From assembly GCA_003194525.1 (NCBI GenBank), contig NBIV01000751.1, positions 1-24,431 on the forward strand: a stretch of 24,431 nucleotides of DNA. The letters run 5' to 3'. The notes under the pieces are model-generated. The model had not been told where the DNA came from and ran no database searches. It saw only the letters and a program-made list of their open reading frames with translations. A program made the position numbers and the translations under genes. Shown piece after piece: positions 1 through 24,431 of the stretch (positions within the stretch are counted from its first letter, which is position 1; each line of letters opens with the position of its first letter). The DNA is from Gracilariopsis chorda. Its lineage: Eukaryota; Rhodophyta; Florideophyceae; Gracilariales; Gracilariaceae.

Positions 1-1
1 T

Positions 2-166
2 TCTATCCCCAGCGGGGTAACGGCGAATGAAAACGAGATCATCGCGCGTTTTCTCCGGGGTGCCGGTCTTAGCGCTGCCGAGGTATCGGGGGATTTCACC
101 ACCATGGCGGACGCGTTGGCCTACCGCCTTGCTGGGGGTTACGCCCCGGGCAACGGCGAAGAGTGA
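2..166 (+). CDS. C-terminal end of an unknown protein, convergent to pol (partial)
   Basis: An open frame enters from the left edge and runs 54 codons to a TGA at 164-166. The peptide has ordinary protein composition (for example NENEIIARFL, ADALAYRLAGGYAP) and ends in GNGEE. I do not recognise the family. It converges on the pol stop at 359-361, leaving about 190 bp between the two stops. Hairpins of the same type as in the rest of the element (7-17, 29-53, 55-66, 78-89, 135-147) run through it, so I infer it belongs to the element as an antisense ORF between pol and the missing 3' LTR, an arrangement known in some plant gypsy elements. It could instead be the tail of a neighbouring, oppositely oriented element. 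A 54-codon frame open at one end can also arise by chance. Confidence 0.4.
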   Translation, partial: SIPSGVTANENEIIARFLRGAGLSAAEVSGDFTTMADALAYRLAGGYAPGNGEE

Positions 167-358
167 GCTCCTTTTGTCCAGTTTTCCTGGTATTCTTTCC
201 CTGGCTATGCAGTTAGTGTAGTGTAGTATCGTGAGGAGCTAGCTGCTCCCCTGAAATAAACTTTCCCGTTTAGAACGGTGATTTCCAATTAGCATTCCCC
301 GTCTTAGACGGACTTTCCCTTGCTATCCTTTCTTATGCCCTCCGCTCGCGCGGCAACG

Positions 359-1010
359 TTACCCAACTTGGGCATTAACCAGCGTGGCTGGGGCTGCAGT
401 TCCCGTTTGACGGTGGTATCGCACGATCTGCGACCGTGGGAGGTGTTCAATTGGCTCCCACGTATCCCCACTGGGTCGTACCCTTACCAGCGGACGCGGT
501 ATTGTAGAATACCATCCTGGTCCCAGGTGTGTCCGACAAGTCGGTCTACTACGAACTCTCGTTCGTAGACCTGCCGGCCGTGCCGGGTGGTGGTTGTACT
601 CCCTTGCGAGGGTTGTCCGCGGTGCGGTATAATGTCCCTTAGCAGGGTGTTCGGCGATAACTCCGACGTTGCCGTGCGCTGTCCTAGTGGCCGCTGCTCA
701 TGCGGGAAAATATCCCTCAAGAGGGTATGTGGTGTCACGGTTTTCCCCGGCAAGTCATTCCCCATTGGGGTGTCGTTGTTCCCGTCTTCACGGTAGGCCA
801 GGCGAACCGCCAACCGGCGGGGGACTTGAACTCCGCATTCGCGGTTGAACTCACGAACCGCGAGTTTGCGGGAAGATGACCGCTCCTGCGGAATCGGCGT
901 TTCCACGATCCCCTGGGGGGTCCCGTGCGGCACGGTGTTGGATGGAAAACCGCCTCCCTGCCAGGCGCACGAGCGCTCTGCACCGTACGTTCCGGCGGCG
1001 CGTGGTGTCC
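359..1010 (-). pseudogene. pol C-terminal tail with chromodomain
   Basis: From about 1010 to 484 the frame encodes a basic, Pro/Arg-rich linker with a repeated peptide (HTLLRDIFPH, then NTLLRDIIPH about 30 residues on), leading into VYEREFVVDRL and YRVRW, the first strands of a chromodomain. TAA at 484-486 sits where the usual residue between W and GYDP would be. Shortly after, a 1-nt shift near 467 restores DTWEPIEHLP and IVRYHRQTG, the diagnostic second half of the fold, and the frame ends at 359. Chromodomains on gypsy integrases are known to bind modified histone tails and steer integration. The domain identity is clear despite one stop and one frameshift within it. Confidence 0.8.
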
Positions 1011-1125
1011 CCGGCTACTGGGGGGTTGCCTAAGGCTAACTCCGGTACACCGGTATTTTGGTCAAAATTCCCCTTTGGGGGGTGCCGGGCAGGTGCCGAT
1101 GACACCCTTTTCAGGGGCCTGGCCG

Positions 1126-2405
1126 CTAAGTGCGGTGCACCGTCTCCATGAGGAGGAGCAGCGTCCGGTACGACCGGTTTCGAGCGTGCGATGGCGCGCG
1201 TTTTTCCCGAGTTCCTCGGTTCTTCGCCGCAGCGTTGCGGTAGTTGGCGCAAATTATTCCCCGGAACGGGGGCTTCGATTCCGTCTGCGACGGGGAGCGT
1301 TTCCGAGCGCTGCGCGCCAGGGCCTGAAGCTTCGGATGCGGCTTGGCTACCCTTTTCCCGATAGGGGTGTGGGTATTTCCCAGCGGCGCTGGTGTATCTG
1401 GGCGCCTCTTCTCCGCGGGGCGCGGGTCTGAGCGACCTGATTGAACCGCTTCCGCGGGACTTCTGCCAATGGCGGCTTTGAGGCATCTCCCTGCTCAGGG
1501 ATTGAGGGCGATTGTCGCCGTACTCCCGTATCGGGATCCTTCCCTGACAGGGGTGTGCGGTAGCTGCGTTTCAGCTTCCCGTGTAACGCGGTGTATTTGC
1601 CGCCTTTGCGGGACCTGCGCGTCTGGTTCCTGTTGCACAGCGCTGCCCGAGGACGGGGGATTAGTGTCGCGTGAGATACTCCGTGCTCCGCGGTCAGTTG
1701 TCCGTATGGTACGGCGTGTTTCCCGTTGCGACGGCGATCTCATTCCTCGAAAACGAGTGTTCTCCTCCCCCTCCTGAGACGGAGCGGCGGGATAAGGGAT
1801 AACATGCCCCGCCTGGCGGGTGTAGATTCGCGCCATAGGGGCGGGCACAGAGAGGCCCGAATTACCCGGCTGAGCCGGTGAGTCCGACAGGGTCGGTAGG
1901 TCTGAGAGTCCCCGGGAGGGGTGTGGTAGCACGGTAGGCCGTCTCACCACCGATGTATCGGATGCAGAGCCATATTCCAGCGTAGGGTCCAGCGTAGCTG
2001 GTGCAGCCTCAGTCGAGGGTGGCGGAGCTAGCACGATGCGATCGCGAGATAACCGCTCATGCGCGTCACCCATTTCCACAACCACTGTGTCCGTCGTGAC
2101 GGAGATAACCTTGAAAGGACCATCCGCCACAGGCGAGAGCTTATGGTGCTTCTCCCGTTCAGGGTTGTAGTACTCCTTGCGGACGAATACGAAGTCCCCG
2201 GAGTTGATCTGTTCCGGTTTGCCTCCTCGCAAGCGAGCATCGAAATTCCGTTTGTAGGCGGCTTGGGCGTGGTCCATCGCCTTCCGCGCTGCGGGTACCA
2301 GCTTGGTCAGCCATGCTTTCCACTTCTGGCGGTAATCCTTCACAGAAGGGAGCGCGTCCAACGTAGGTTGGGATTCCAACGCCATTGGCGGGGTGTCCGT
2401 GAAAG
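1126..2405 (-). pseudogene. Integrase C-terminal GPY/F module and long linker
   Basis: Past a 1-nt shift near 2400 that follows integrase motif SPFELVLSRTP, the frame continues with PPMALESQPTL, a basic helical stretch (KLVPAARKAMDHAQAAYKRN) and the SH3-like GPY/F module (KLSPVADGPFKVISV, then SRDRIVLAPPP). It then enters a low-complexity Pro/Ser/Arg/Thr-rich linker to a TGA at 1495-1497; the same frame is open again to a TAG at 1126-1128. The GPY/F module in gypsy integrases contributes to multimerisation and DNA binding. The linker between it and the chromodomain, over 400 codons, is unusually long. Confidence 0.75.
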
Positions 2406-3158
2406 GACCAACTCGAAAGGGGATATTCCGGTAGTCCGGTGTACCTGCGTATTGTACGCAAAGGTCACGGCATCCGTGTAGATATCCCAAGTCTTGGGGT
2501 GGTCATCCGTGTAAGCACGGAGAGCTGCGAGCATTGTCCGGTTGAAACGCTCGACCTGCCCATTAGACTGGGGATGATACGTGGTCGTGAAGAGATTCTT
2601 CACGTCCAGTATCCGACAGACGTCCTGGAAAAATCGCGATGCGAACTGTTTCCCGTTGTCGGAAAGTAGCTCCAAAGGAGGTCCGTAGGCAAACACCCAA
2701 TGCCGCACAAAGGCGTGAGCGACCGTGTAGGCGGTAATCCTCTTTAGAGGGACTGTCCGAACTAATTTCGAGAACCTGTCCGTAATAACGAGTAGGAACT
2801 TGTTGCCTCTCCTGGTAGAGAGCAATGGTCCGAGAATGTCAATTGCGACAAACTCGAGCGGCGCCCTGGCGGGGAATAGCTTCATCCGTTTGGAGTGCTT
2901 CCGGAGTTTGACCCGGTTCTTCGCGCATTGCGTGCAAAACCGCACCGTAGCGTAGCAATCAACCGCCATGGCGGGCCAGTAGAAATCCCTGCGAAGGGTT
3001 AGATAAAGCTTCCTCCCACCGGAGTGTCCCTCGAGTTTCGGGTAATGCGAAAGGTGCAATATCCGCTTCTGTAGCGTGTGCGGTACCACAACTTGTGGGG
3101 TAGCCTCGACGGTCCTCACGAGGTAACCAATGTCGTTCACCCCGAAGGGGAGGTTCTC
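2340..3158 (-). pseudogene. Integrase zinc-binding and catalytic core
   Basis: This carries out strand transfer of the element's cDNA. In the minus frame, numbering from the codon at 3140: the HHCC zinc module is seen as SHYPKLEGHSGG (H32, H39) and FCTQC (C69, C72). The RNase H-fold core has D101 in AIDILGP, D161 in LLSDNGKQF and E197 in SNGQVERFNRT, so spacing is D-x59-D-x35-E, the classic retroviral/gypsy triad, fully intact. The frame is continuous with RNase H except for one in-frame TGA at 3159-3161. It runs out of frame near 2400, after ISPFELVLSRTP, where the downstream segment takes over through a 1-nt shift in a C run. Confidence 0.92.
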
Positions 3159-3905
3159 TCAGCCGTTGAGGCGTGCACGTATCCTTGTACAGAAGGGGTC
3201 CCCGAATTGTTCTCGGATCATTTCCTCGGTCTCAACCGGTACATAATTTCCCGGTATGGGTTTCTCAGAATCATCTCGCGATGCGAGTAGGTAGTCGAAG
3301 TCAGCATCTTCGTCCCAGTTTTCTGGCTCAGCCTCGACGGCACATTCCGGATCATCCGGGTCCATTGCCATGAAACATGGGACTTCATCATCCTCCGTTG
3401 GGAGTGCCTCCCCACTTGTGGGTAAACGCGACAGAGCGTCGGCTTGGGTGTTCTGCGCGCCCTTTTTATAAATGACTTGGAAGTCATATTCCGCGAGGCG
3501 GAGTCTCCAGCGCATGAGGCGTCCCGACGGGTCGGAGATATTCATTAACCACCTCAGTGAGGAATGATCCGTGTACACGGTGAAATGGACTCCCATAAGG
3601 TAGGGGCGCAGAGTGGTCATCGCCCATACGACGGCGAGGCACTCTTTCTCCGATACGGAGTAGTTCCGCTCATGGACATTGAGCGAGCGCGACCAATAAC
3701 CAATTGGGTGTCGTTCCCCCTCGGGGGTGGTTTGAAAAAGAGCACACCCGACTTGGTAGTCGCTCGAGTCCGTATCTACGGAGTATGGCAACCCAAGTTT
3801 TGGGAGATGTAGGATTGGTGCTGATGTGACAGCCTCCTTCAAGGAGTTAAAGGCTTCCGATTGCTCGGGCGTAAATGTTCCCAGTTTTGGGGGTTCCCCT
3901 TTCGC
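3159..3905 (-). pseudogene. RNase H domain and connection to integrase
   Basis: RNase H degrades the RNA strand after minus-strand synthesis. Visible motifs in order: KGEPPKLGTFTPEQ, the first acidic motif SVDTDSSDYQVGC, SEKECLAVVWA with its Glu, FTVYTDHSSLRWLM with the next Asp, and NTQADALSRLP near the end of the domain. An acidic linker (PENWDEDADFDYL) follows before the TGA at 3159-3161. Relative to the RT frame this segment is reached only through two single-base shifts near 3915 (C run) and 3897 (G run). The catalytic residues I can see are preserved, so the damage looks recent or artefactual. Confidence 0.88.
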
Positions 3906-3915
3906 AACAACGCGT

Positions 3916-6027
3916 TCAGGGCGCTGCAGTATCCGAAAAGTTCGGGATAAACCGTCGATAGACGTTGACCAGCCCCAGAAAGGAGCGCAGTTCCGTTTGA
4001 GTACGGGGTTCTTTCGCCTCAACGAGGGATTTGACTCGAGCTTTCTCGATCGCTAACCGTCCAGGACGGATAATGTGACCCAGATACTTCACAGTATCTG
4101 TGAAAAACTCGCATTTCCTCAACTTGAGGGTAATTCCCGCATCGCGGAGTACGGTCAGCACGTCTCGGACGTGAGTGAGATGGTCGTCCAACGAGTTGGA
4201 GAAGATGATAATATCATCAAGGTAGACCAGACAACTCCGCCACTTAAAGCGGTTGAGTAGAATATCTACTGCACGCTGAAAGGTGGCGGGGGCGTTGGTT
4301 AACCCAAATGGCATCCGCTTGAAGCGGTACATTCCTGCATGGCAGGTGAATGCGGTTTTGTCGCGATCCTCCTGTCTGACAGGTACTTGCCAATATCCCC
4401 AATTGGCATCAAGGGCCGTGAACACGGTGGCGTCTCCAAGGGAGTCAATGCACTCGTCCATACGAGGGATGGGGTACGTGTCCCTAACAGTCACGGCATT
4501 GAGCCGGCGGTAGTCGACACAGAACCTCCAGGTTCCGTCAGCCTTTAAAGCCAGTACAACTGGGGATGCCCAGGGCGATTGAGCGGGCTCAATCACACCT
4601 GCGCGGAGCATCTTGTCCACCTGGGACTGTTCCTCTTCCCGAGCTTTCGGACCTGCCCTGTAAGGGGGTTGTGCAACCGGTCGCGCACCGGGGATTAAAT
4701 CGATCCGGTGTTCCGTTGCATCAATCTCGCCAAGCGAGCCATCCCACATTGTGGTGAATTCCCGTAACATAGTACGGAGTTTGTCGCGGTGCGACTCTGG
4801 CACGTGGCTGAAGTCCAGCGCTTCAAGTGCTTTTTCCGGATCAATCCGGTCATTGCTCGATGGAGCATTGTCCTGTGGAACAGGTGTGGTTCGCAATTCC
4901 GAGTTACTCGGTATGTTCAACGCTGAAGTAGCGGTTTCCTCCCCCTCCTTAGACTTGACGTCTTCGGACGGCGGGGCGAACTCTTCAGAAGAGGTGGTAA
5001 CTCCGAGTACATCGGCGGCTGTCATCTTCGTTGGCAGCATTCCCATAGGATGGGGGGTTACACTCCCAATTACTTGGTGTTTGACCAGATACTGGGGGTG
5101 TTTGCCAAGGTTGGCAACCAATATCCGGAAAGGAACATCCGGGGAAATGGAGACAATTCCATTAGCCAGCGCCAGCTGGGATTTCTCGTACAACGAGGCG
5201 AGGGGTTGTATAACCCGAAGACCGTGTTGACGGGAATTTACCTGTACCCAGACTTGGGACTCAGCCGGTATAGAAACCGAGGCAGCGACGCGGAGCTTGG
5301 TGGACTCGCGGGACGCGGGCGGTGGTTCCTGCGCAGCAGGGAGCGGAACTTGTTTCCGAGAGGACCGCTTTAGTGGGCGGCGAACAATCGGAACCGACGA
5401 TCCGTCGTCAAGTTCTACACGCCTGAGGCGGGGCCTGATTGCGTCGACAAATCTGTCGCAGTAATCACATCCCAGTATGACTGGTGCTGCCAGTGAACGG
5501 CAAACGATGAAGTCCAACTTCACCACAGAGGTACCAAGTCTCACGACGAGGTCCACTGTGCCCACCGTTTGTAACGGATTGTTGTTCGCATCCGAAATGT
5601 CGGGGACCGCGTCAGAGCGGATACGCGACCGCACAAGCGGGGGTAACAATGATTCCACGACAAAGTTGGGGCCTGCACCTGTATCCAGGACGGTGAGAAA
5701 CCTCACCATAAACTGGGGGTCAAGGCCAAGGTCGGCATAGACCTTATAATTGCGCTTGGCCAAGACCAAGACTCTACCGGGAATCCGGGGATTTTTACTC
5801 CGTATCCACGGGCGACGCAACACACCGAGGTGCGCAGAGTCCGCGTCAGCGGTGTGTTTCCTCGAGAGGACTTTCACCGGGGAGCGAGGCGAGGACGCCT
5901 CGGGCGCCAACAGCCTCGTTTTTGAGGACGCCTCTCCCAAAGGGGAGACTCCCTCAGTTAGTTTTCCGCCTTCGGCGGTGGGTTGGTTTCCTCGACAACG
6001 AGTGCTTCATCCCGTTGACGGGGGTTT
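3916..6027 (-). pseudogene. Aspartic protease and reverse transcriptase portion of pol
   Basis: Numbering from a TTG at 5940 (674 codons). The protease active site is FLTVLDTGAG (D86-T87-G88) with the flap-side motif VILGCDYC at about 154-161. An acidic/Ser-rich spacer (about 310-370) leads to the RT: PVAQPPYRAGPKAREE, WRFCVDYRRLNAVT, the first catalytic Asp in FTALDANWGYWQ (D511), MPFGLTNAPATFQ (543-555) and the YLDD box (573-576) before IIIFS. The thumb motif KYLGHIIRPG and SFLGLVNVYRRFIPNF close it. No ATG opens this frame; it overlaps gag's end in the -1 frame and is open back to 6027, so expression is probably by frameshifting. The frame is uninterrupted to 3916. All RT catalytic residues are present. 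Confidence 0.93.
5934..5967 (-). promoter_or_regulatory. Candidate -1 ribosomal frameshift site at the gag/pol junction
   Basis: In the minus sense the heptamer GGAAAAC (5967-5961) lies immediately before the gag TAA (5960-5958). Slipping back one base there reads GGA AAA CTA and continues straight into the protease frame. Eleven bases after the stop there is a stem-loop CTCCC-CTTT-GGGAG (5947-5934). The heptamer resembles, but is not identical to, the best known XXXYYYZ sites; GGAUUUA in MMTV is a comparable relaxed form. A stimulatory hairpin at this distance is typical. Hairpins are everywhere in this element, so the downstream one is weak evidence by itself. Confidence 0.45.
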
Positions 6028-8132
6028 CTATCCGCATAAGCGGGGGTTGCAACGGATGGTTGCGTGATCTCCCGAATCGGGGTGTATGAAGCTTGCCGCG
6101 CACGCGGGGTCTGTGGTAGGGCGTGAGAAAAGTCCGTTTTAGCACGGAGGTAGGAAGCCGTCGGGACGGAACGTTTCTCCTCTGGAGTGAGGGCCTCATA
6201 ATTTGCCACCACCTTGGCCATATCCTTCAGTGAACAAATACACTGAGGAGAGGTATGGCCATGGGCATAGCACAGGTGGCAAATGAGAGCCAGCACCGCG
6301 ACACGCGGATTATTATTCCGAGTATCGGAGAAGCGAACCGCAGGGCGGGTGTCCGTCCATCCAGGCCGCTGATAACGGGATTGACCGTTTGAAAACGGGA
6401 GTCGTTGGGGTTGAACCCGACTGTTACCACCGTATAGAACGGGATCTTCTGTTCCCGTATCATGGGTCATCTCCGTCGTTGACGGTAACTCACTGGTGGG
6501 TATCGACACACCATCCCCCTGCGCTAAATGCACGGTATCAAATCCCTGTCCAGGGTTCCCATCCGCGGTGAGCGGGAGAGAGGAAGCTTCGCTTTCCAGC
6601 AACAACGCCTTGGCGGATTTAGACCGATTGTTCGGAGTTCTTGCACGAAGTGCATCCCCTTCCGCTCGAGCGTGTTGGACCAGCTCGAGGTAGGTGACCC
6701 TTCGCTTGTCCTCCCGATAACGGGTAACTAAACTCCGGATTGCCGGGTCAAGACCATCAATGAACATGGTACTGCGCTCCCCAGCGGGGTATACGTTACC
6801 ACATCTGTGGAAAGCCTTGTTAAGGCGCACCGAGTAATCGGTCTCGGTCTCTCCAGCACGCTGGCGTGTATCTCGCAAAGCGAGGATAGCCTGCTGAATA
6901 GCGGTGTTGGTGGCGTAGGAGCGCAGAAGATACTGCACAGCCTCCGGCCAGCAAGTAACTCCTCCCTCGGAGGCGCGAGAAGATCCTCGGACAGAGGTGT
7001 ATTGGTCCTCGGCCACTCCCCGTAAGAAATACGGTAAAGCCAAATAGGCTTGTCCCTCATTCATACCGAGGATATCGGCCTCCGCTACAAAGCGGGATAG
7101 GAAATCTAGTACTAGGACTGGGTCCTCTCCAGTAAAATACTGGTTGCGGAGCGAGAGCTGCATTCGCTTAATGCATTCTCGCACCTTTCCCGTACCACGG
7201 GGCGTACGTCCAAGTGACGAATCTTCAAGCCGGTAGTACCGGTATGATAAAAGCTTCCGGTAATCCGGGTTTGTCGGTTTCAATTCCCGGAGACCGGGGT
7301 GTCTTCTCCCCTTCTGGCGGGTTCGGACCACACCTTCAGTGGCCGATGACCGCTTCGAGCGGGAGGAGTAGCCTCGCTTCTCGTCCTCCGAGTCGGAGTC
7401 CGAGGAGCTCGAGCTAACCGAATGGTTTCGGGATGAGTCCGACGATGTCGAAGAGTCGGAGTCCGAATATTTTCGGTGGTGTTTCCGTCGGTGACGGCGT
7501 TTCTTCTTCCCAGCAAGCTGGTCGTTGTGCGATGCCTCGTTGACCGGATCACCCGGGGATGGTTTGTCCATGAGGACGAACTGCTCCAGCGTCTCCAGGC
7601 GGGCACCAATCCGATCAAATCGGGCTTCAACTCCTTCGATGAAGGCGGCGGGTTGTCCCAAACTCTCCAACACGGAGTTGACGTCAGACCGTAAAATACG
7701 GAGCTCCTCGGCGACCTCCTTTACGGGGGTTGCCGAGACCACCTCTTGGACGGATTTTAGTTCCCCTACAAGGGTGTCATGGGCGGTCCACAGAGCGCGG
7801 ACCTGGGATTCCAGGGAAGTTCCCTGGGGGGTGTTATCGCCCGTTCCACGGGGGCTTGAAGCCGCGACAGCGGGAGCAGGCCGGGGTGCCTGGGGCACTG
7901 CGGCAACAGCCGGAGTCGATGCTGCATTCCCCTGCGGGGGTGATGACGAGGGCAAAAGGAGGTTCCGGGGTTCCCGGTCGGGGGTATCATTCCGCGATGA
8001 AGCGGCGCCAGCACGGCTGGAACTTGTCCGTATAGGGATACGGGGTACGAACCGAACTTCGGAAGTGTCCGCGTTGTCGCGGGAGCGACTACGCGTAACC
8101 ACTGGCTCCGCGTCGGAGGGATTTCTCGACAT
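5958..8132 (-). CDS. gag: Gag polyprotein of gypsy element A
   Basis: Structural protein that would form the virus-like particle and package element RNA. 724 codons, ATG at 8132, no internal stop. Order: a basic Ser/Arg/Pro-rich N-terminus (1-105); a predicted helical or coiled-coil stretch with regular Leu/Val (about 110-190); a very charged segment, first Lys/Arg/His-rich (209-221), then Ser/Asp-rich (222-250); a retrotransposon gag core (about 315-490) with YFTGEDPVLVLDFLSRF, LALPYFLRGVAEDQ and ETETDYSVRLNKAF; then a zinc knuckle C618-x2-C621-x4-H626-x4-C631. The start is supported because the same ATG context is conserved in copy C at 22789 and follows the LTR and primer site by about 100 bp. 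The coding sequence is threaded with short hairpins yet remains open. Confidence 0.93.
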   Translation of the reverse strand: MSRNPSDAEPVVTRSRSRDNADTSEVRFVPRIPIRTSSSRAGAASSRNDTPDREPRNLLLPSSSPPQGNAASTPAVAAVPQAPRPAPAVAASSPRGTGDNTPQGTSLESQVRALWTAHDTLVGELKSVQEVVSATPVKEVAEELRILRSDVNSVLESLGQPAAFIEGVEARFDRIGARLETLEQFVLMDKPSPGDPVNEASHNDQLAGKKKRRHRRKHHRKYSDSDSSTSSDSSRNHSVSSSSSDSDSEDEKRGYSSRSKRSSATEGVVRTRQKGRRHPGLRELKPTNPDYRKLLSYRYYRLEDSSLGRTPRGTGKVRECIKRMQLSLRNQYFTGEDPVLVLDFLSRFVAEADILGMNEGQAYLALPYFLRGVAEDQYTSVRGSSRASEGGVTCWPEAVQYLLRSYATNTAIQQAILALRDTRQRAGETETDYSVRLNKAFHRCGNVYPAGERSTMFIDGLDPAIRSLVTRYREDKRRVTYLELVQHARAEGDALRARTPNNRSKSAKALLLESEASSLPLTADGNPGQGFDTVHLAQGDGVSIPTSELPSTTEMTHDTGTEDPVLYGGNSRVQPQRLPFSNGQSRYQRPGWTDTRPAVRFSDTRNNNPRVAVLALICHLCYAHGHTSPQCICSLKDMAKVVANYEALTPEEKRSVPTASYLRAKTDFSHALPQTPRARQASYTPIREITQPSVATPAYADRNPRQRDEALVVEETNPPPKAEN

Positions 8133-8212
8133 GAGAAAATACCGTTACGACGGGAAACGATCACGGAACTTCCGGTGAATGAAAACAAACCTCGTAAGAG
8201 GGAAAACAAAAA

Positions 8213-8234
8213 CCGATTCTAGGTCGGGAGACCA
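8213..8234 (-). promoter_or_regulatory. Primer binding site of element A
   Basis: Three bases after the LTR end the minus strand reads TGGTCTCCCGACCTAGAATC. Its complement folds as a tRNA 3' end: T-loop-like CGATT, T-stem CTAGG, acceptor strand TCGGGAG, discriminator A and CCA. This is what a tRNA-primed gypsy element needs to start minus-strand synthesis. The tRNA identity cannot be assigned by eye; its 5' acceptor strand should be CTCCCGA. Confidence 0.7.
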
Positions 8235-8786
8235 CTTTGTGGTGCAATGCCCCAAAGGGGAAAAACACCGAAAGACGTCCGGGATCTTCCTCTCACGAGG
8301 TGAACCCAGTTGGGTAGAGCCCTCCCAGAGGTGTCACGGCGAAGCCGGTTTGTAAGACCAGGGACACCTGTCGCGACTCGCGCAGGGAGGTGAAGGCGAA
8401 GAATCGGTATCCGCGTGAGCGGGGCGTGATCCTCAGTAGAGGTATGTTTCCACGTAAGTGGGGGTGTGTGAGCGGATGCGCACACGAGGGCCGCGGATAG
8501 CGGGAGGTGCTACCCTAAAAAGGGGAAAGAGGAAGGACGAGTGGGTCGCGAGAGCGACGAGTAGATACGGCGATGCCGGTGGACGGGACTCCCTATACAG
8601 GGCGAAACACCAATATGATTGGAACAATTAGTACTCCCAATGATGGGTCTCCTTTAGATGTGCAAGGGGGGTGAACTTCCGTACACTACGGTGCTTCCCT
8701 CCAAGGAGGAGTTGAGAACACGCGGAGGCGGTAAAGCTCAGAGCCAATTCCCCAGGTTCGGGTCCCTTGTTGGGGAAGGTTTACTG

Positions 8787-8811
8787 GTGCGACGGCAGTG
8801 CGCCGTCGCAC
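8787..8811. repeat. Ten-base-pair stem-loop in LTR A
   Basis: GTGCGACGGC and GCCGTCGCAC pair perfectly around a 5-nt loop. It is the strongest hairpin seen in the LTR and is identical in pairing in LTR C (about 22109-22133). LTR B keeps the outer GTGC/GCAC and inner CGGC-type pairing but has lost the middle pairs (near 9581-9605). It lies about 235 nt from the LTR 5' end, close to the AT-rich tract. Confidence 0.8.
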
Positions 8812-8840
8812 TAAGTACTAGCTTCCCAGAAATGGGTGTG

Positions 8841-8870
8841 AAAATAATAAATAAAATTAACTAAAATACT
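8841..8870 (-). promoter_or_regulatory. AT-rich tract in LTR, candidate core promoter region
   Basis: A run made almost only of A and T (minus sense TTTTAGTTAATTTTATTTAT...) conserved in LTR B (9633-9660) and LTR C (22051-22079). It is the one clear stretch in the LTR without the GC-anchored hairpins. By position, about 175-205 nt into the LTR, it could hold the TATA-like element of the U3 promoter. This is inference; no transcription start is visible. Confidence 0.35.
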
Positions 8871-9044
8871 CCACATTCCGTGGCAACATCCACTACTGTG
8901 GCCAACCGCCAATTGACCCAAAACCGTGTCCCACGTGTCCATACCCAGCGTAGTGGGGCGTAGTTCATATACACACTACACAACCGATAATATCGGGAAA
9001 ACAATCAAGTACCAAGAATCCCTCCCTGAGGGCGTTGCACTTCA

Positions 9045-9835
9045 GTGCAATGCCCGGAAGCGGGAGCGCACCGAAAGACGTTCGGGATCTTTCCTCGTTA
9101 GAGGTGAGCCCAGTTGGGTAGAGCCCTCCCAGGAGTGGCACGACTATGTCGGGTTGTAAGGCCAAGGCCACCCGTTGGGACTTGCGCAGGGAGGTTGAGG
9201 CAAGAATCGGGTATCCGCAGGAGCGTGTATGGGGTTGGTCGTCCTCTAGAGAGGTGAGGTTTCCACGTTAGTGACACGCGCGAACACGAGCCGTGGGTAG
9301 CGGGAAAGCCACCCTGTAAAGGTAAAAGTAAGGGGGAGCTGAGTCACGAGTGTCGTGACGAAGACTAAAGGCAGTGCCAGTAAATAAACCTTATGCAAGG
9401 CGAACACCAAGACAGCTGGAATAACAATCCAAATACTCGGGTCCTTTAGATAGGCAAGGGGGTTACACTTCCCGTACGCGACGGTGCTTCCCTCCAAAGA
9501 GGAGTAGAGAACACGCGAAGGCGGTGAGGTCTAGAGCCAATTCCCTAGGTTGGGGTCCCTTGTTGGGGAAGGTTTACTGGTGCAACGGCAACCCGCCAGC
9601 GCACTAAGTACTAACCATCCCAGAAATGGGTGTAAAAATAATAAATAGAATTAACTAAATAACTCCACTTTGGTAATTCATGCCCACTACTGCGGCCAAC
9701 TGCCAATTGACTCTTCCGTGTCCCACGTGTCAAATCCACCATTAGTGGTCGTAGTTCATGCAATGAGTACATTACCGAAACATTCGGAAAATCAACCAAG
9801 TACCAAGAATCCCTCTCTGAGTGCATTGCACTTCA
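9045..9835 (-). repeat. LTR B, diverged LTR of the same family
   Basis: Aligns along its whole length with LTR A in the same orientation, with shared blocks such as GGTAGAGCCCTCCCAG, GAAGGTTTACTGGTGC and CCTCCAA(G/A)GAGG, but with many substitutions and small indels. In element sense it starts TGAAGTGCAATGC at 9835 and stops at GCATTGCAC, lacking the last four or so bases (CACA) of LTR A, directly against LTR A's first base. No internal region follows it, so it is a solo LTR or a recombination remnant. It keeps most hairpins, several through compensatory changes. Confidence 0.82.
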
Positions 9836-12800
9836 TAAATACATGCACGTCCAGTGCTTATTCCAGCCTTGCATCCGTCCGCATGCTTCTATCGTTAAAT
9901 TCTGCGCGCACTCACGCTCTACATACCTGAGCCAAGGTTTGCTCACCAATTCTGCATCTGCTTCTGCTTTCTGTTCCCGGTCGGCTACTTTTGCGAACCT
10001 CAGTGCTTACTTCTGGCTCGTCCCTCTACGCCAAATAGTATTCCATTGTCCAGATCTGATGGTTTCTAGTGCTCCCGCTTCTGCTTTTGCTCTGCGCTCA
10101 CGATCCTCTTACGCCTTGTGTTTCTCTGCATACTTCCGCCCTGTGCTTTCAGTCTTCTCCGTCTTTCGCCCTGTGCTCTCTTATAATCTCGTCTAGCGCT
10201 TTTGCTCTCGCCTCCTACATGCGATCGCACTAGGTGCTTTCCCTGAACTCCGACTAATGCTTTTGCTTTTGCATTGCGTCCTTGCCCTTAAGCTTTCAAA
10301 CCCACCCTTGCTTTGACATCTTACACATGCAAAGCTAAGAACTCGACTTTTTGTTCCCCAGTGACCGTCAGTCAAGGAAATCGTTCCTGTTTCTCCCTCA
10401 TTTTCAGGTGAAGCAACACCACATGTGCAATATCGTCAACCCACTAGGAATACGCCAGGCTCCCAACGTTTGCGCATCGGAAAGCCATACTATAAGCATG
10501 AGTGGTCTCCTTGCCAGCTAGCTACTGCGCCGGTGCAGTATCGCACAGTTTGACAGTTTCTTCTGATTGGTCATCTTTTCTTTGGGTTTTACCTGTTTGG
10601 CATTGTGATTGACCGTACGAGCTAAATGTTCTTGAAATCCACCGTATTTTTGAACAACAGTTATCACTGGCTTGTTTGCATTCTAGATCGATCAATTGAA
10701 GCTTCTAGCTGCCACATATCGCAGTCATTGGAGGCTCCGCACAGAAGCCTCGAGGTAATATCCTCACCGCCCTTTCCTAGAATCAGAAGTTGGCACATCG
10801 CCTAGACTAGGAGTTAGAAAGCTGAGTACTGGTTGAGAATTGAAAAGAAGTCTTGAAATAATCCGGCGGCATTTAAGCACACCAGATAACTGGCTCAGCT
10901 GGGGCGTGACCTCCAAATCGTCGGTGACTGGGTGTATCATCGTTAGGCGTGAATTACAATGCTATTCCAGCACGCAAATCGGACCACGTTTGGCGACAAG
11001 GTAGCCAGAAGAGATCAGAGAAGGTAATCTGTTGAACACATATCTCTCTTTTGATAACATCCCCAGGACTTCTCATACGTTATACGCACCCTCGTTCTGG
11101 ATTGCACAGAACTTCGGCCCATCGTTGAAACCACATTTCATCGGAAGACTCATAGTCAGGGGCAATGCTTTCATGTTCAGGGGTTCTGAGATATCATCTC
11201 CCAACAGTGGCCCAGAACGTTTAACAAGGAAGGATCCCTCCCCTGGTAGGACAAAGATACAAAATGCTCATCTGCCACTTTACAGCTCTCTCGCCTCGAG
11301 CAGACTCGGCGATGGACATTGATAGAGACCAAGGAAGCTGACATATACCCCGACAAAAGTAGATCGCCTATTATTTCATACAGCAAATATACTTACGGAT
11401 CTCTGTAGAGCAATGCTTAGTTGCCGGTCCTCTGAGGGTCGTTTATCATGAAGGTGAAGTACGGAAATTGCATCTTTTCCAATCAGTTATGAGTGGATAA
11501 GTGGAAACTTTGGTGAAATTCAGCATGAATATTAGTTGCTGTTTTGTACCTCTACAGGTGTTCTTATGATATCTGGGATTATTGGACGCATGACCGGCTT
11601 GCAAGGTCTTTTCATCGCTAGTTTGATGCAAATGTGTCGTGTTGCGCCGTGCCCAGTCCTGCAGCTCAGCAACACGAGTGTGTGTACCAAACAAAGCATG
11701 GCGCACTACAGTGTTTAGTATTCATAGTCTGTCCTAGCCATTAGTACTGAAGAGAGAATGCCTCCACAGTTTCCCACTAAAGTAGAGGTAAGCTTCGACT
11801 CGGCTCTGTGCTTATCGCCTGTGGCAAGTGACCAATGACTCCTGGAGTCTCACCGAGTCCTGTTTTGGTAAACTCTCTCGCCCAGTATTTTGTAGGACCA
11901 CTGAAGTATTTTATCTGGTTGGTTCGCCCACTAATTATCTGCCAATACCGTTTTGGTTACTCTTGCTGTTGCGGGAACAGAGAGTTGTTTGACTCAGTAT
12001 GGCCTTTTTGAGCGATGGCCCTAGATGGAATTTTCGGAATAACAGTAGTGCACTTGGACAGTGGATGGCTGTAGTGGATGACGCACAGAAGCTAAATGGA
12101 TGCCATCGAGAGGTTTACGAATCTCTGTTTTTGGCCAATAATTGAGGTGTTCGAACTGAAGTTCCAAAGAGCGCGTGCGACACACAGATGGAGCGCTGAC
12201 CCTACACTTTGCATTCCGTTTATACTCCCACTGCAATGCTTTGAAAGTGGTCACAATGCATTCGCATTCTGTGCGACATCCAGAAAGCGAAACAAGTGCA
12301 ATGTTTTGTGCCAGAAGTGTCCATTTGGAAAATACACCGAGTTCTGCACGAAGGCAAATGGCGTGTGGGACCCTTGTATACTGCACTCCAACTGCACACC
12401 TCGAAGTGCATAAATGTCTTCTAGGGTGGCTAAATATGCATTACCTCACCATGAGGTCTCTTTCGCTTTCTCTAAGAATCACTGGGATGTTTTCTTTTTC
12501 CTTAGCCTATTCCTTTCGTTCTTCTTATGGATTCTCCTGGCTGAGGGCCAGTGCAAACTTGGATCTCAACGCCCTATCCACAGGTTTACCTATTCTTTGA
12601 TACCTTCTCGGCACGTATAGCCAGCCACTACCTCGTTCTTGAACCCAAATCCCATGTGGTGTGGAGGGCTCCATCGCCGAGTTTACATCGCAAGACGGCA
12701 AGGCCGCGAACCACTGGACAGAATCTTCCGTCCAGGTACATTGCCAGACAATCTCTTGGCAAGGTTTCGAGCATTACTCGTGCTCACCGAACCCGTCCAC

Positions 12801-21873: not shown

Positions 21874-22681
21874 TGAAGTGCAACGCCCTCAGGGAGGGAT
21901 TCTGGGTACTTGAACGCTTTCCCGATATTATCGGTTGTGTAGTGTGTATATGAACTACGCCACACAATGGTGGGTATGGACACGTGGGACACGGTTTTTG
22001 GGTCAATTGGCGGTTGGCCACAGTAGTGGATGTTGCCACGGAATGTAGAGTATTTTAGTTAATTTTATTTATTATTTTCACACCCATTTCTGGGAAGCTA
22101 GTACTTAGTGCGACGGCGCACTGCCGTCGCACGAGTAACCTTCCCCAAACAAGGGACCCCAACCTGGGGAATTGGCTCTGAGCTTTACCGCCTCCGCGTG
22201 TTCTCAACTCCTCCTTGGAGGGAAGCACCGTAGTGTACGGAAGTTCACCCCCCTTGCACATCTAAAGGAGACCCATCATTGGAAGTACTAATTGTTCCAA
22301 TCATATTGGTGTTTCGCCCTGTATAGGGAGTCCTGTCCACCGGCATTGCCGTATCTACTGGTCGCTCTCGCGACCCACTCGTCCTTCCTCTTTCCCCTTT
22401 TTAGGGTAGCACCTCCCGCTATCCGCGGCCCTCGTGTGCGCATCCGCTCACACACCCCCACTTACGTGGAAACATACCTCTACTGAGGATCACACCCCGC
22501 TCACGCGGATACCGATTCTTCGCCTTCACCTCCCTGCGCGAGTCGCGACAGGTGTCCCTGGTCTTACAAACCGGCTTCGCCGTGACACCTCTGGGAGGGC
22601 TCTACCCAACTGGGTTCACCTCGTGAGAGGAAGATCCCGGACGTCTTTCGGTGTTTTTCCCCTTTGGGCCATCGCACCACA
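21874..22681 (+). repeat. LTR C, 5' LTR of element C (808 bp)
   Basis: Begins TGAAGTGCAACG and ends ATCGCACCACA, with TG...CA ends. The inverted match to LTR A covers its full length. It contains the AT-rich tract (22051-22079) and the 10-bp stem-loop (about 22109-22133). A few point differences from A restore or lose pairs: C has CCCCA/TGGGG where A has one mismatch, near 22147-22166. Confidence 0.88.
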
Positions 22682-22684
22682 AAG

Positions 22685-22706
22685 TGGTCTCCCGACCTAG
22701 AATCGA
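22685..22706 (+). promoter_or_regulatory. Primer binding site of element C
   Basis: TGGTCTCCCGACCTAGAATC, three bases after the LTR, the same position and near-identical sequence as in element A. Complementarity runs through a whole tRNA acceptor strand, T-stem and into the T-loop. Confidence 0.7.
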
Positions 22707-22788
22707 TTTTTGTTTTTCCCTTCTTACGAGGTTTGTTTTCATTCACCGGAAGTTCCGTGATCGTTTCCCGTCGTAACGGTATTTTCTC

Positions 22789-24431
22789 ATGTCGAGAAAT
22801 CCCTCCGACGCGGAGCCAGTGGTTACGCGTAGTCGCTCCCGCGACAACGCGGACACTTCCGAAGTTCGGTTCGTACCCCGTATCCCTATACGGACAAGTT
22901 CCAGCCGTGCTGGCGCCGCTTCATCGCGGAATGATACCCCCGACCGGGAACCCCGGAACCTCCTTTTGCCCTCGTTATCACCCCCGCAGGGGAATGCAGC
23001 ATCGACTCCGGCTGTTGCCGCAGTGCCCCAGGCACCCGGCCTGCTCCCGCTGTCGCGGCTTCAAGCCCCCGTGGAACGGGCGATAACACCCCCCCAGGGG
23101 ACTTCCCTGGAATCCCAGGTCCGCGCTCTGTGGACCGCCCATGACACCCTTGTAGGGGGAACTAAAATCCCTCCAAGAGGTGGTTTCGGCAACCCCTGTA
23201 AAGGAGGTCGCCGAGGAACTCCGTATTTTACGGTCTGACGTCAACTCCGTGTTGGAGAGTTTGGGACAACCCGCCGCCTTCATCGAAGGAGTTGAAGCCC
23301 GATTTGATCGGATTGGTGCCCGCCTGGAGACGCTGGAGCAGTTCGTCCTCATGGACAAACCATCCCCGGGTGATCCGGTAAACGAGGCATCGCACAAAGA
23401 CCAGCTTGCTGGGAAGAAGAAACGCCGTCACCGACGGAAACACCACCGAAAATATTCGGACTCCGATTCTTCGACATCGTCGGACTCATCCCGAAACCAT
23501 TCGGTTAGCTCGAGCTCCTCGGACTCCGACTCGGAGGACGAGAAGCGAGGCTACTCCTCCCGCTCGAAGCGGTCATCGGCCACTGAAGGTGTGGTCCGAA
23601 CCCGCCAGAAGGGGAGAAGACACCGTCTCCGGGAATTGAAACCGACAAACCCGGATTACCGGAAGCTTTATCATACCGGTACTACCGGCTTGAAGATTCG
23701 TCACTTGGACGTACGCCCCGTGGTACGGGAAAGGTGCGAGAATGCATTAAGCGAATGCAGCTCTCGCTCCGCAAGCAGTATTTTACTGGAGAGGACCCAG
23801 TCCTAGTACTGGATTTCCTATCCCGCTTTGTAGCGGAGGCCGATATCCTCGGTATGAATGAGGGACAAGCCTATTTGGCTTTACCGTATTTCTTACGGGG
23901 AGTGGCCGAGGACCAATACACCTCTGTCCGAGGATCTTCTCGCGCCTCCGAGGGAGGAGTTACTTGCTGGCCGGAGGCGTGCAGTATCTTCTGCGCTCCT
24001 ACGCCACCAACACCGCTATTCAGCAGGCTATCCTCGCTTTGCGAGATACACGCCAGCGTGCTGGAGAGACCGAGACCGATTACTCGGTGCGCCTTAACAA
24101 GGCTTTCCACAGATGTGGTAACGTATACCCCGCTGGGGAGCGCAGTACCATGTTCATTGATGGTCTTGACCCGGCAATCCGGAGTTTAGTTACCCGTTAT
24201 CGGGAGGACAAGCGAAGGATCACCTACCTCGAGCTGGTCCAACACGCTCGAGCGGAAGGGGACACTTCGTGCAAGAAAAACTCCGGTCTAAATCCGCCAA
24301 GGCGTTGTTGCTGGAAAGCGAAGCTTCCTCTCTCCCGCTCACCGCGGATGGGAACCCTGGACAGGGATTTGATACCGTGCATTTAGCGCAGGGAGATGGT
24401 GTGTCGATACCCACCAGTGAGTTACCGTCAA
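22789..24431 (+). pseudogene. gag: gag of element C, frameshifted and cut by the window edge
   Basis: ATG at 22789 in the same context as the intact gag of element A. Against A there is an extra G in a G run near 23155; a 3-base loss near 23625 that also destroys one hairpin; a lost T in a T run near 23669; a lost T near 23979; and further changes near 24265. The coding potential therefore moves through at least four frames: N-terminus and Ser/Arg region, coiled-coil plus Ser/Asp-rich part, gag core (YFTGEDPVLVLDFLSRF) and its C-terminal half. The zinc knuckle would lie beyond the edge. As in pol of A, the indels are mostly single bases in short runs. Confidence 0.85.

What the first reader, a model, noticed from the sequence alone, without database searches (positions are those of the whole stretch)
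1..9044. A retrotransposon built as an almost continuous array of short hairpins
Element A carries a short perfect inverted repeat about every 22-23 bp through LTR, leader, gag, pol and the terminal region. A random 5-bp stem with a 2-6 nt loop is expected about once per 200 bp; in the homologous 23170-24250 stretch of copy C I counted about 20 in 1.1 kb, roughly four times that, plus many 4-bp ones. The hairpins overlie conserved protein domains (protease, RT, integrase) without breaking them, so synonymous freedom seems to be used to keep pairing. RNA viruses with genome-scale ordered RNA structure are a known parallel; I know of no retrotransposon described with such regular small stem-loops. 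Possible roles: RNA compaction or packaging, shielding from small-RNA silencing, pausing of reverse transcriptase, or a genome-wide protein-binding code.
Basis: partly seen in the sequence, partly recalled or inferred. Interest (0 to 1): 0.9.

Follow-up and report, generated by a model that had tools for sequence, protein, structure and literature searches.

The report
Retrotransposon lined with conserved micro-hairpins
A group of jumping genes in a red seaweed carries many tiny, evolutionarily maintained hairpin-forming sequences along its length, even inside its protein genes, which points to an undescribed signal that something in its life cycle reads.

Summary
Element A (window 1-9044, sense = minus strand; a Ty3/gypsy element of a red alga) has 175 perfect stems of at least 5 bp against 41.9 in dinucleotide shuffles. 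Stems with a 5'-CC...GG-3' foot inside ORF pieces of A and three relatives number 213 against 28.8±4.8 in codon-preserving shuffles. Sampled controls of the same genome (kinase genes, copia elements, one other Ty3/gypsy locus) lack it.

The hairpins have defined anatomy: 4-5 Watson-Crick pairs, a loop of at least 3 nt, and in most families a foot beyond which pairing is avoided. Preferred neighbour spacing is 18-24 nt. G·U is no commoner than other mismatches. Arms are conserved between close relatives although fresh mutations strike them normally. Double changes restore pairing about twice as often as with slid partners.

So selection for hairpins in a single strand is the best reading, rather than composition, chance or hairpin-copying mutation. 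My mechanism is inferred: many copies of a recognition site on the element's own nucleic acid, most likely read by its Gag protein during packaging or reverse transcription (0.4). The missing G·U speaks against ordinary RNA-only structure and leaves a role in single-stranded DNA, or in both strands, open.

The parts
1..9044 (-). Element A: Ty3/gypsy LTR retrotransposon copy, sense on the minus strand, cut off at position 1 by the contig end; carries the hairpin array throughout
   Evidence: RVT_1, RNase H, integrase domains; stem density in every 700-bp bin
8243..9044 (-). 5' LTR, TG...CA, about 802 bp; 20 CC-foot stems against 1.5 expected (counted over 8242-9044)
   Evidence: read from sequence; L040 holds the same start as a 3' LTR; counts
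8984..8996 (-). example hairpin ccgat-ATT-atcgg (5 bp, 3-nt loop) in the LTR
8610..8622 (-). example hairpin ccaat-CAT-attgg in the LTR, showing that A-T inner pairs are accepted
5958..8132 (-). Gag ORF (724 aa) with a Lys/Arg- and Ser-rich stretch and a CCHC knuckle CHLCYAHGHTSPQC (window 6240-6281); 48 CC-foot hairpins vs 4.7 in codon-preserving shuffles
3916..5940 (-). Pol ORF piece with reverse transcriptase; 35 CC-foot hairpins vs 4.0
3159..4022 (-). Pol ORF piece with RNase H; 16 CC-foot hairpins vs 3.2
2340..3140 (-). Integrase ORF piece; 9 CC-foot hairpins vs 1.2
1495..2490 (-). Pol 3' ORF piece; 17 CC-foot hairpins vs 2.8
484..933 (-). ORF piece ending in the first part of a chromodomain-like region (full chromodomain PF00385 found in relative L040)
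923..935 (-). example hairpin ccgtg-CCG-cacgg
21874..24431 (+). Copy C of the same family (98% identical), cut off by the contig end; 49 stems of at least 5 bp vs 11.9
9045..9860 (-). Older related LTR (about 74% identical) abutting A; 9 CC-foot hairpins vs 1.2; its far end was not defined

Best explanation
Shown: one lineage of Ty3/gypsy elements in this red alga carries micro-hairpins (4-5 Watson-Crick pairs, loop of at least 3 nt, mostly a 5'-CC...GG-3' foot, neighbours preferably 18-24 nt apart) through LTR and genes. There are about 20 CC-foot stems per kb in A and about 6-18 per kb in the relatives, and selection maintains them. Inferred: each hairpin is one copy of a multi-copy recognition site on the single-stranded genome copy of the element (genomic RNA, and perhaps also its cDNA). 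It is read by a protein of the element, most likely Gag, which has a basic stretch and a CCHC knuckle. Many weak sites together would recruit or order Gag on the element's own nucleic acid during packaging and reverse transcription, much as dispersed packaging signals do in small RNA viruses. Inner bases are free because only paired shape and foot are read; the foot differs between families because each would recognise its own RNA.
For: Pairing is physical: from the fourth pair inward, in spans 11-13, the next pair is complementary with chance 0.66-0.73 while the loop stays at 3-5 nt, and 0.25-0.30 when the loop would be 1-2 nt. A site is delimited: the pair just outside the foot is Watson-Crick 48 times against 104.7 expected (n=440; not in the L014 family, 10 vs 11.4). 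Orientation matters: in A, CC-foot 182 vs 13.4, GG-foot 19 vs 12.7. Inner triplets are diverse: 45 of 64, 5.2 bits, n=128. Selection: arms differ at 11/343 sites, loops 15/124, outside 115/1101 between A and L043 at hairpins located in the third sequence L040 (Fisher 5e-6), while singleton mutations among 38 copies hit arms normally (59/2108 vs 217/8856). Two-sided changes restore pairing 161/336 vs 21-30% with slid partners; hairpin centres coincide between families (A-L077 29 vs 3.4). Foot differs by family: L014 TC 24 vs 3.8 plus CC 21 vs 3.2; A mostly CC. Pooled sense-strand flanks are A-rich and G-poor (C over G odds 1.36, p 3e-6). Most Gag homologues aligned share the CCHC knuckle.
Against: No reader has been shown and no Gag-hairpin contact was tested. 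G·U pairs have no clear excess inside stems (GT 8 vs 8.0, TG 11 vs 8.8, while WC is 500 vs 38.8) and are not avoided outside the foot (26 vs 29.9), which is odd for an RNA-only signal. In A 1-3000 only 49 of 130 hairpin placements are in the 300-nt RNA MFE, and sense and antisense RNA have similar folding excess. The flank bias is not in every family (L009 and L014 lack the A excess). At about 35% divergence between families, arms are no more conserved than the rest in two of three comparisons, and small LTR comparisons are mixed, so single sites turn over. Arms in parallel-complement geometry are also raised (112 vs 60).
Confidence: 0.4

Rival explanations
1. The hairpins act in single-stranded DNA (minus- or plus-strand cDNA during reverse transcription), or in both strands, for example to protect, compact or time copying of the cDNA or to load a DNA-binding element protein.
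For: Strict Watson-Crick pairing with G·U no commoner than other mismatches and no counting of G·U as pairing at the foot is what DNA hairpins, or a requirement on both strands, predict; folding excess is similar on both strands.
Against: No direct evidence of ssDNA; pooled flanks are strand-asymmetric in the way expected of a folded sense strand; the mirror-image sign for a folded minus strand is mixed (interior C·A 20 vs 9.2 but A·C 9 vs 8.9).
Confidence: 0.22
2. Shield against small-RNA silencing: hairpins about 20 nt apart make both the target site and any 20-22-nt guide from either strand self-folding.
For: Nearest-neighbour spacing peaks at 18-24 nt; the both-strand requirement would forbid G·U.
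Against: Does not explain the CC...GG foot, avoidance of longer stems, or family-specific feet; twelve gaps of 87-128 nt remain in A; the copia loci in the same genome do without. No small-RNA data were available.
Confidence: 0.1
3. Generic genome-scale RNA structure (compaction, stability) without a specific reader.
For: Local RNA folding energy is below shuffles (sense z -3.2 to -8.0 in six stretches of four hairpin families, 0.1 to 1.2 in three control loci).
Against: Constant oriented foot, sharp stem boundary, no G·U use, similar signal on antisense, few hairpins in the RNA MFE of A 1-3000.
Confidence: 0.1
4. Binding sites in double-stranded DNA for a homodimeric protein (dyad symmetry only).
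For: Strand-symmetric Watson-Crick rule; foot resembles a half-site.
Against: Inner triplets are nearly free yet complementary to each other, which a duplex reader should not sense; complementarity ends where a loop would be sterically too small; flanks are asymmetric.
Confidence: 0.05
5. Mutational origin: template switching during reverse transcription or repair copies one arm onto the other.
For: Perfect pairing without wobble; private gains exceed simulated random substitution (gain/loss 0.58-0.82 vs 0.24-0.33); one private gain (L015) changed both members of one pair.
Against: 14 of the 30 private gains overlap another stem and so largely re-define it, four more rest on gaps or indels, and most of the others are single substitutions. 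Arms change more slowly than loops between lineages while new mutations hit them normally, which correction between arms would not give. Copia loci and another gypsy locus of the same host lack the pattern.
Confidence: 0.05

Closest known systems
Dispersed packaging signals of single-stranded RNA viruses (packaging-signal-mediated assembly; review PMC6281560, passages read)
   Same: Many short stem-loops spread through the genome, sharing a recognition feature and varying elsewhere
   Different: In the MS2 example read there the recognition motif is in the loop and a bulge; here loops are free and the constant part is the foot; very dense; no G·U; in an LTR retrotransposon; protein contact untested
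Palindromic motif clusters in Sirevirus (copia) LTRs of maize (PMC10760457, passages read; original study PMC4728375 not held)
   Same: LTR retrotransposon with clusters of short palindromes able to form hairpins; the quoted consensus CACCGGACNNNGTCCGGTG also has a CCG..CGG and 3-nt-loop shape
   Different: A common consensus, concentrated in LTRs of copia elements and associated with small RNAs; here variable arms over LTR, gag and pol of a Ty3/gypsy lineage. [quoted passage not shown]
Genome-scale ordered RNA structure of RNA viruses (recalled; listing only)
   Same: Folding energy lower than shuffles along the genome
   Different: Here discrete oriented micro-hairpins with strict Watson-Crick pairing and similar signal on both strands
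Ty3/gypsy chromoviruses (definition recalled)
   Same: Gag, then RT-RNase H-integrase, with a chromodomain downstream in relative L040
   Different: Hairpin array and an extra antisense ORF at the 3' side

Membership tests
Ty3/gypsy LTR retrotransposon (chromodomain type) | RT, RNase H, integrase in this order | tested here: met
   Pfam RVT_1, RT_RNaseH, Integrase_H2C2, rve
Ty3/gypsy LTR retrotransposon (chromodomain type) | Chromodomain after integrase | tested here: met
   PF00385 E 8e-11 in relative L040; in copy A only a shortened homologous stretch
Ty3/gypsy LTR retrotransposon (chromodomain type) | LTR with TG...CA ends | tested here: met
   read from sequence; same start seen as 3' LTR in L040
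Dispersed packaging signals | Many stem-loops with a shared recognition feature, kept by selection | tested here: met
   CC...GG foot, arm conservation, compensatory change
Dispersed packaging signals | Stem-loops bind the capsid/Gag protein and promote assembly | not testable with these tools
   needs binding and packaging assays
Dispersed packaging signals | RNA-type pairing (G·U accepted; expectation from general knowledge) | tested here: not met
   G·U no commoner than other mismatches
Genome-scale ordered RNA structure | Sense RNA folds more stably than shuffles along the genome | tested here: met
   sense z -3.2 to -8.0 in six stretches of hairpin families
Genome-scale ordered RNA structure | Signal belongs to the RNA strand rather than equally to its complement | tested here: not met
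   antisense z -3.3 to -9.6
Sirevirus-type palindromic LTR motifs | Repeated copies of one consensus palindrome, concentrated in LTRs | tested here: not met
   45 of 64 inner triplets used; CC-foot density 16-27 per kb in LTR, leader, gag, pol and 3' region

The most novel reading that the evidence does not exclude
A Ty3/gypsy lineage has written a Watson-Crick-only hairpin code over its genome, around 200 micro-hairpins in element A whose constant foot differs between families, read in single-stranded DNA or on both strands by an element-encoded protein as a self-versus-foreign mark that governs which molecules are packaged and copied.
Probability: 0.3. Interest if true: 0.95.

Novelty: new variant of a known kind. 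Interest (0 to 1): 0.85.

Why it matters
How a retrotransposon's Gag tells its own RNA from the mass of cellular and rival-element RNA is an open question. A signal written many times over the genome, superposed on the protein code and with a foot that differs between families, would be a new answer, testable by synonymous recoding. The strict Watson-Crick rule makes it an unusual natural case in which RNA-level and DNA-level selection on structure can be told apart. It also warns that codon-usage and selection analyses of such elements would be misread if the hairpin layer were ignored.

Tried and rejected
Composition: rejected by dinucleotide shuffles and codon-preserving shuffles.

Whole-genome or host property: rejected for the loci sampled (15 kinase, 12 copia, 10 random pieces) and one other gypsy locus, L079. 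The 12 copia loci are mostly near-copies of a few families (judged from their nearly equal scores, not clustered), so their CC-foot deficit (4 vs 32) is not 12 independent results.

21-bp lattice: only a nearest-neighbour preference; z 2 against gap permutation.

Arm-geometry control: mirror repeats 59 vs 61.8 (none in the hairpin families, but raised in kinase genes, 244 vs 120). Direct repeats 115 vs 65 (also high in kinase genes, 323 vs 122; codon periodicity is my guess). Parallel-complement arms 112 vs 60 in the hairpin families and 127 vs 116 in kinase genes; I take this as a by-product of dense CC and GG at fixed distance but did not prove it. Reverse-complement arms 285 vs 62.7.

Cytosine-deaminase shielding (CC/TC placed in stems): set aside because only 182 of the 886 CC in A are CC-foot 5' ends; not tested further.

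Templated mutation: see rivals.

Relatives elsewhere: viral contigs gave none. Genome contigs gave 9 distant loci, of which I counted 7 (not L087, L089): none is strongly enriched; the most raised are L085 (CC-foot 34 vs 19.7), L088 (11 vs 6.1) and L086 (14 vs 8.1). A hAT-transposon control failed because its loci could not be cut out. Structure prediction of the antisense-ORF protein was never accepted. One search timed out and was redone. Literature searches listed no description that I recognised of such an array in a retrotransposon; I saw titles and abstract openings only, except passages of PMC10760457 and PMC6281560.


Full report
WHAT IS THERE. The window is a 24.4-kb contig of an unnamed 91.3-Mb genome. 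The organisms named among the listed integrase relatives are the red algae Agarophyton chilense and Chondrus crispus, and an extra ORF has its best relative in Gracilariopsis chorda at 53%, so the host is a red alga, probably near Gracilariales (inference). Positions 1-9044 hold a Ty3/gypsy element with its sense on the minus strand: 5' LTR (about 8243-9044), Gag, and Pol with RT, RNase H and integrase. A second copy starts at 21874 on the plus strand (98% identical), and an older LTR abuts A at 9045. All 40 scored matches to a 1-kb probe in the genome are 99-100% identical (of 898 candidates), so the family is abundant and recent.

THE OBSERVATION. Perfect stems of at least 5 bp with loop 2-6: 175 against 41.9±8.1 in dinucleotide shuffles; at least 4 bp: 419, one per 21.6 bp; the middle of the window 69 vs 54.9. 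The excess is confined to short loops: exact 4-bp stems number 72 at loop 4 but 11-33 at each loop length from 9 to 30. Codon-preserving shuffles of ten ORF pieces from A, L014, L009 and L043 give 28.8±4.8 CC-foot stems against 213 observed.

WHO HAS IT. Three further families in the same genome, about 63-72% identical to A over 2.5 kb of pol, share it: L009 type (CC-foot 50-54 vs 2.8-4.0 per 3.5-kb locus, 7 loci), L014 type (18-32 vs 1.8-6.4, 23 loci of 2.2-3.5 kb), both, and L077 (21 vs 3.0). Closer relatives L043 and L040 share it too. Not enriched: 15 kinase loci, 12 copia loci, and L079, a Ty3/gypsy-like locus without nucleotide similarity to A (25 stems vs 30.2). So among the loci sampled the property follows one retrotransposon lineage, not the host's base composition or mutation in general. 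Of 10 random 4-kb pieces two were strongly enriched (both with gypsy sequence); L047 and L045 were mildly enriched and not examined; the other six were near background.

ANATOMY. In A, 98 of 185 stems of at least 5 bp begin with CC and end with GG (5.2 expected). GG...CC feet are near chance (19 vs 12.7 for stems of at least 4 bp). From the fourth pair inward, in spans 11-13, complementarity of the next pair holds at 0.66-0.73 while the loop stays at 3-5 nt (third pair 0.46-0.56; 0.51-0.52 at span 14). It is 0.22-0.30, about chance, when the loop would be 1-2 nt. This is the steric limit of a real hairpin. The pair just outside the foot is Watson-Crick only 48 times against 104.7 expected among 440, though not in the L014 family (10 vs 11.4), so in most families the stem has a defined end. 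Flanks differ between strands: pooled, A is over- and G under-represented on the sense strand, but L009 and L014 lack the A excess. Inner triplets are diverse (45 of 64). In L014 the foot is shared between TC (24 vs 3.8) and CC (21 vs 3.2), unlike A. Nearest neighbours lie preferably 18-24 nt apart without a longer-range lattice; with CC, TC, CT and CG feet together A has 255 non-overlapping stems covering 35% of its length.

STRICT WATSON-CRICK PAIRING. With all other pairs of a stem intact, interior pairs are Watson-Crick 500 times (38.8 expected); GT 8 (8.0), TG 11 (8.8), AC 9 (8.9), CA 20 (9.2), CT 19 (8.2), AG 17 (8.1). If the loop-closing pair is included, most mismatch types rise and G·U does not stand out. 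A-T inner pairs are common. Outside the foot G·U is not avoided (26 vs 29.9), while Watson-Crick pairs are. Among one-sided changes between families G·U and A·C are about equal (208 and 218, both directions of comparison counted). RNA folding excess is similar on both strands, and in A 1-3000 only 49 of 130 hairpin placements (52 of 130 antisense; overlapping windows) occur in 300-nt RNA minimum-energy structures.

SELECTION. Hairpins located in L040 show 11/343 differences in arms, 15/124 in loops and 115/1101 outside between A and L043. The two other rotations are weaker but agree (18/352 vs 88/1099; 26/351 vs 145/1103). LTR comparisons with small numbers are mixed (1/49 vs 48/408; 22/100 vs 76/343; 23/98 vs 72/345), and at about 35% divergence in pol arms are no more conserved than the rest in two of three rotations. 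Fresh mutations, singletons among 38 copies of three families, hit arms as often as other sites (59/2108 vs 217/8856, odds 1.15, p 0.35), so arms are not mutation-cold. The contrast between singletons and divergence has p 3e-4; hairpin definitions and families differ between the two counts. Across four families hairpin centres coincide above every shifted value in five of six pairs (A-L077 29 vs mean 3.4, A-L009 16 vs 3.0, A-L014 11 vs 2.5, L009-L014 12 vs 1.7, L009-L077 13 vs 2.0); L014-L077 (7 vs 2.0) equals the largest shifted value. Two-sided changes are Watson-Crick in 161 of 336 (48%) against 21-30% with slid partners (both directions of each pair are counted, so these are not independent events). 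Private gains of stems exceed simulation at first sight (30 gains to 42 losses). But 14 of the 30 overlap another stem, four rest on gaps or indels, and most of the others are single substitutions; one (L015) changed both members of a pair. A small templated contribution is not excluded.

HOW IT MOST LIKELY WORKS. Shown: a selected, oriented, delimited single-strand hairpin repeated over the element and, among sampled loci, restricted to one lineage. Inferred: a protein reads the foot and the paired shape, and many sites act together. Gag is the best candidate: it is the protein that coats LTR-element nucleic acid (general knowledge), it has a basic stretch and a CCHC knuckle found in most aligned relatives, and family-specific feet would let each family pick its own RNA. 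The G·U result leaves cDNA, or both strands, as the strongest alternative.

COMPARISON WITH THE KNOWN. The closest concept is dispersed packaging signals (PMC6281560, passages), whose MS2 example puts recognition in loop and bulge. The closest retrotransposon case is the Sirevirus palindrome cluster (PMC10760457, passages), a common consensus concentrated in copia LTRs. Neither definition is met in full. My searches listed no retrotransposon that I recognised as having such an array; the library holds open-licence papers only.

VERDICT. Confirmed, strongly non-random, under selection, mechanism open.

Noticed in passing
window 1-160 (+, by eye); L040:548-2335(+); L043:2807-3712(-): An extra ORF antisense to gag-pol lies before the 3' LTR in related elements (53% to Gracilariopsis chorda BWQ96_03215, also Gracilaria domingensis); no Pfam domain above its cut-off. 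A appears to hold only its C-terminal end. It lies in hairpin-dense DNA.
   Followed up: partly
window 484-5940 (-): The Pol reading of copy A is split over several ORFs in different frames and its chromodomain stretch ends early at a stop; this copy looks defective. Members of related families show longer open frames.
   Followed up: no
window 9040-9050: A's LTR starts directly beside the end of an older, about 74% identical LTR, so A sits at or next to a related element's LTR.
   Followed up: no
window 8222-8242 (-): A hairpin ccac-AAA-gtgg (8232-8242) spans the first bases after the 5' LTR, overlapping a TGGTCTCCCGACC stretch (8222-8234) that could be the primer-binding site; tRNA match not checked.
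   Followed up: no
window 7344-7508 (-): Gag has a Lys/Arg-rich stretch (KKKRRHRRKHHRKY) followed by a Ser/Asp-rich one between its N-terminal part and the conserved core, unusual-looking for a Gag and shared in kind by many of its aligned homologues.
   Followed up: no
L049-L060: Copia loci of the same genome have almost no CC-foot stems (4 vs 32 expected over 12 loci), but they seem to be few families in many copies.
   Followed up: no
L045, L047: Random 4-kb pieces with mild enrichment (CC-foot 10 vs 3.6 and 14 vs 3.1); may hold decayed members of the lineage.
   Followed up: no
hairpin families, interior stem positions (sense): C·A (20 vs 9.2), C·T (19 vs 8.2) and A·G (17 vs 8.1) mismatches exceed chance while A·C, T·C and G·A do not; unexplained asymmetry between the two arms.
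   Followed up: partly
L061-L075: Kinase-gene loci show more mirror repeats (244 vs 120) and direct repeats (323 vs 122) of 5 nt at these spacings than shuffles.
   Followed up: no
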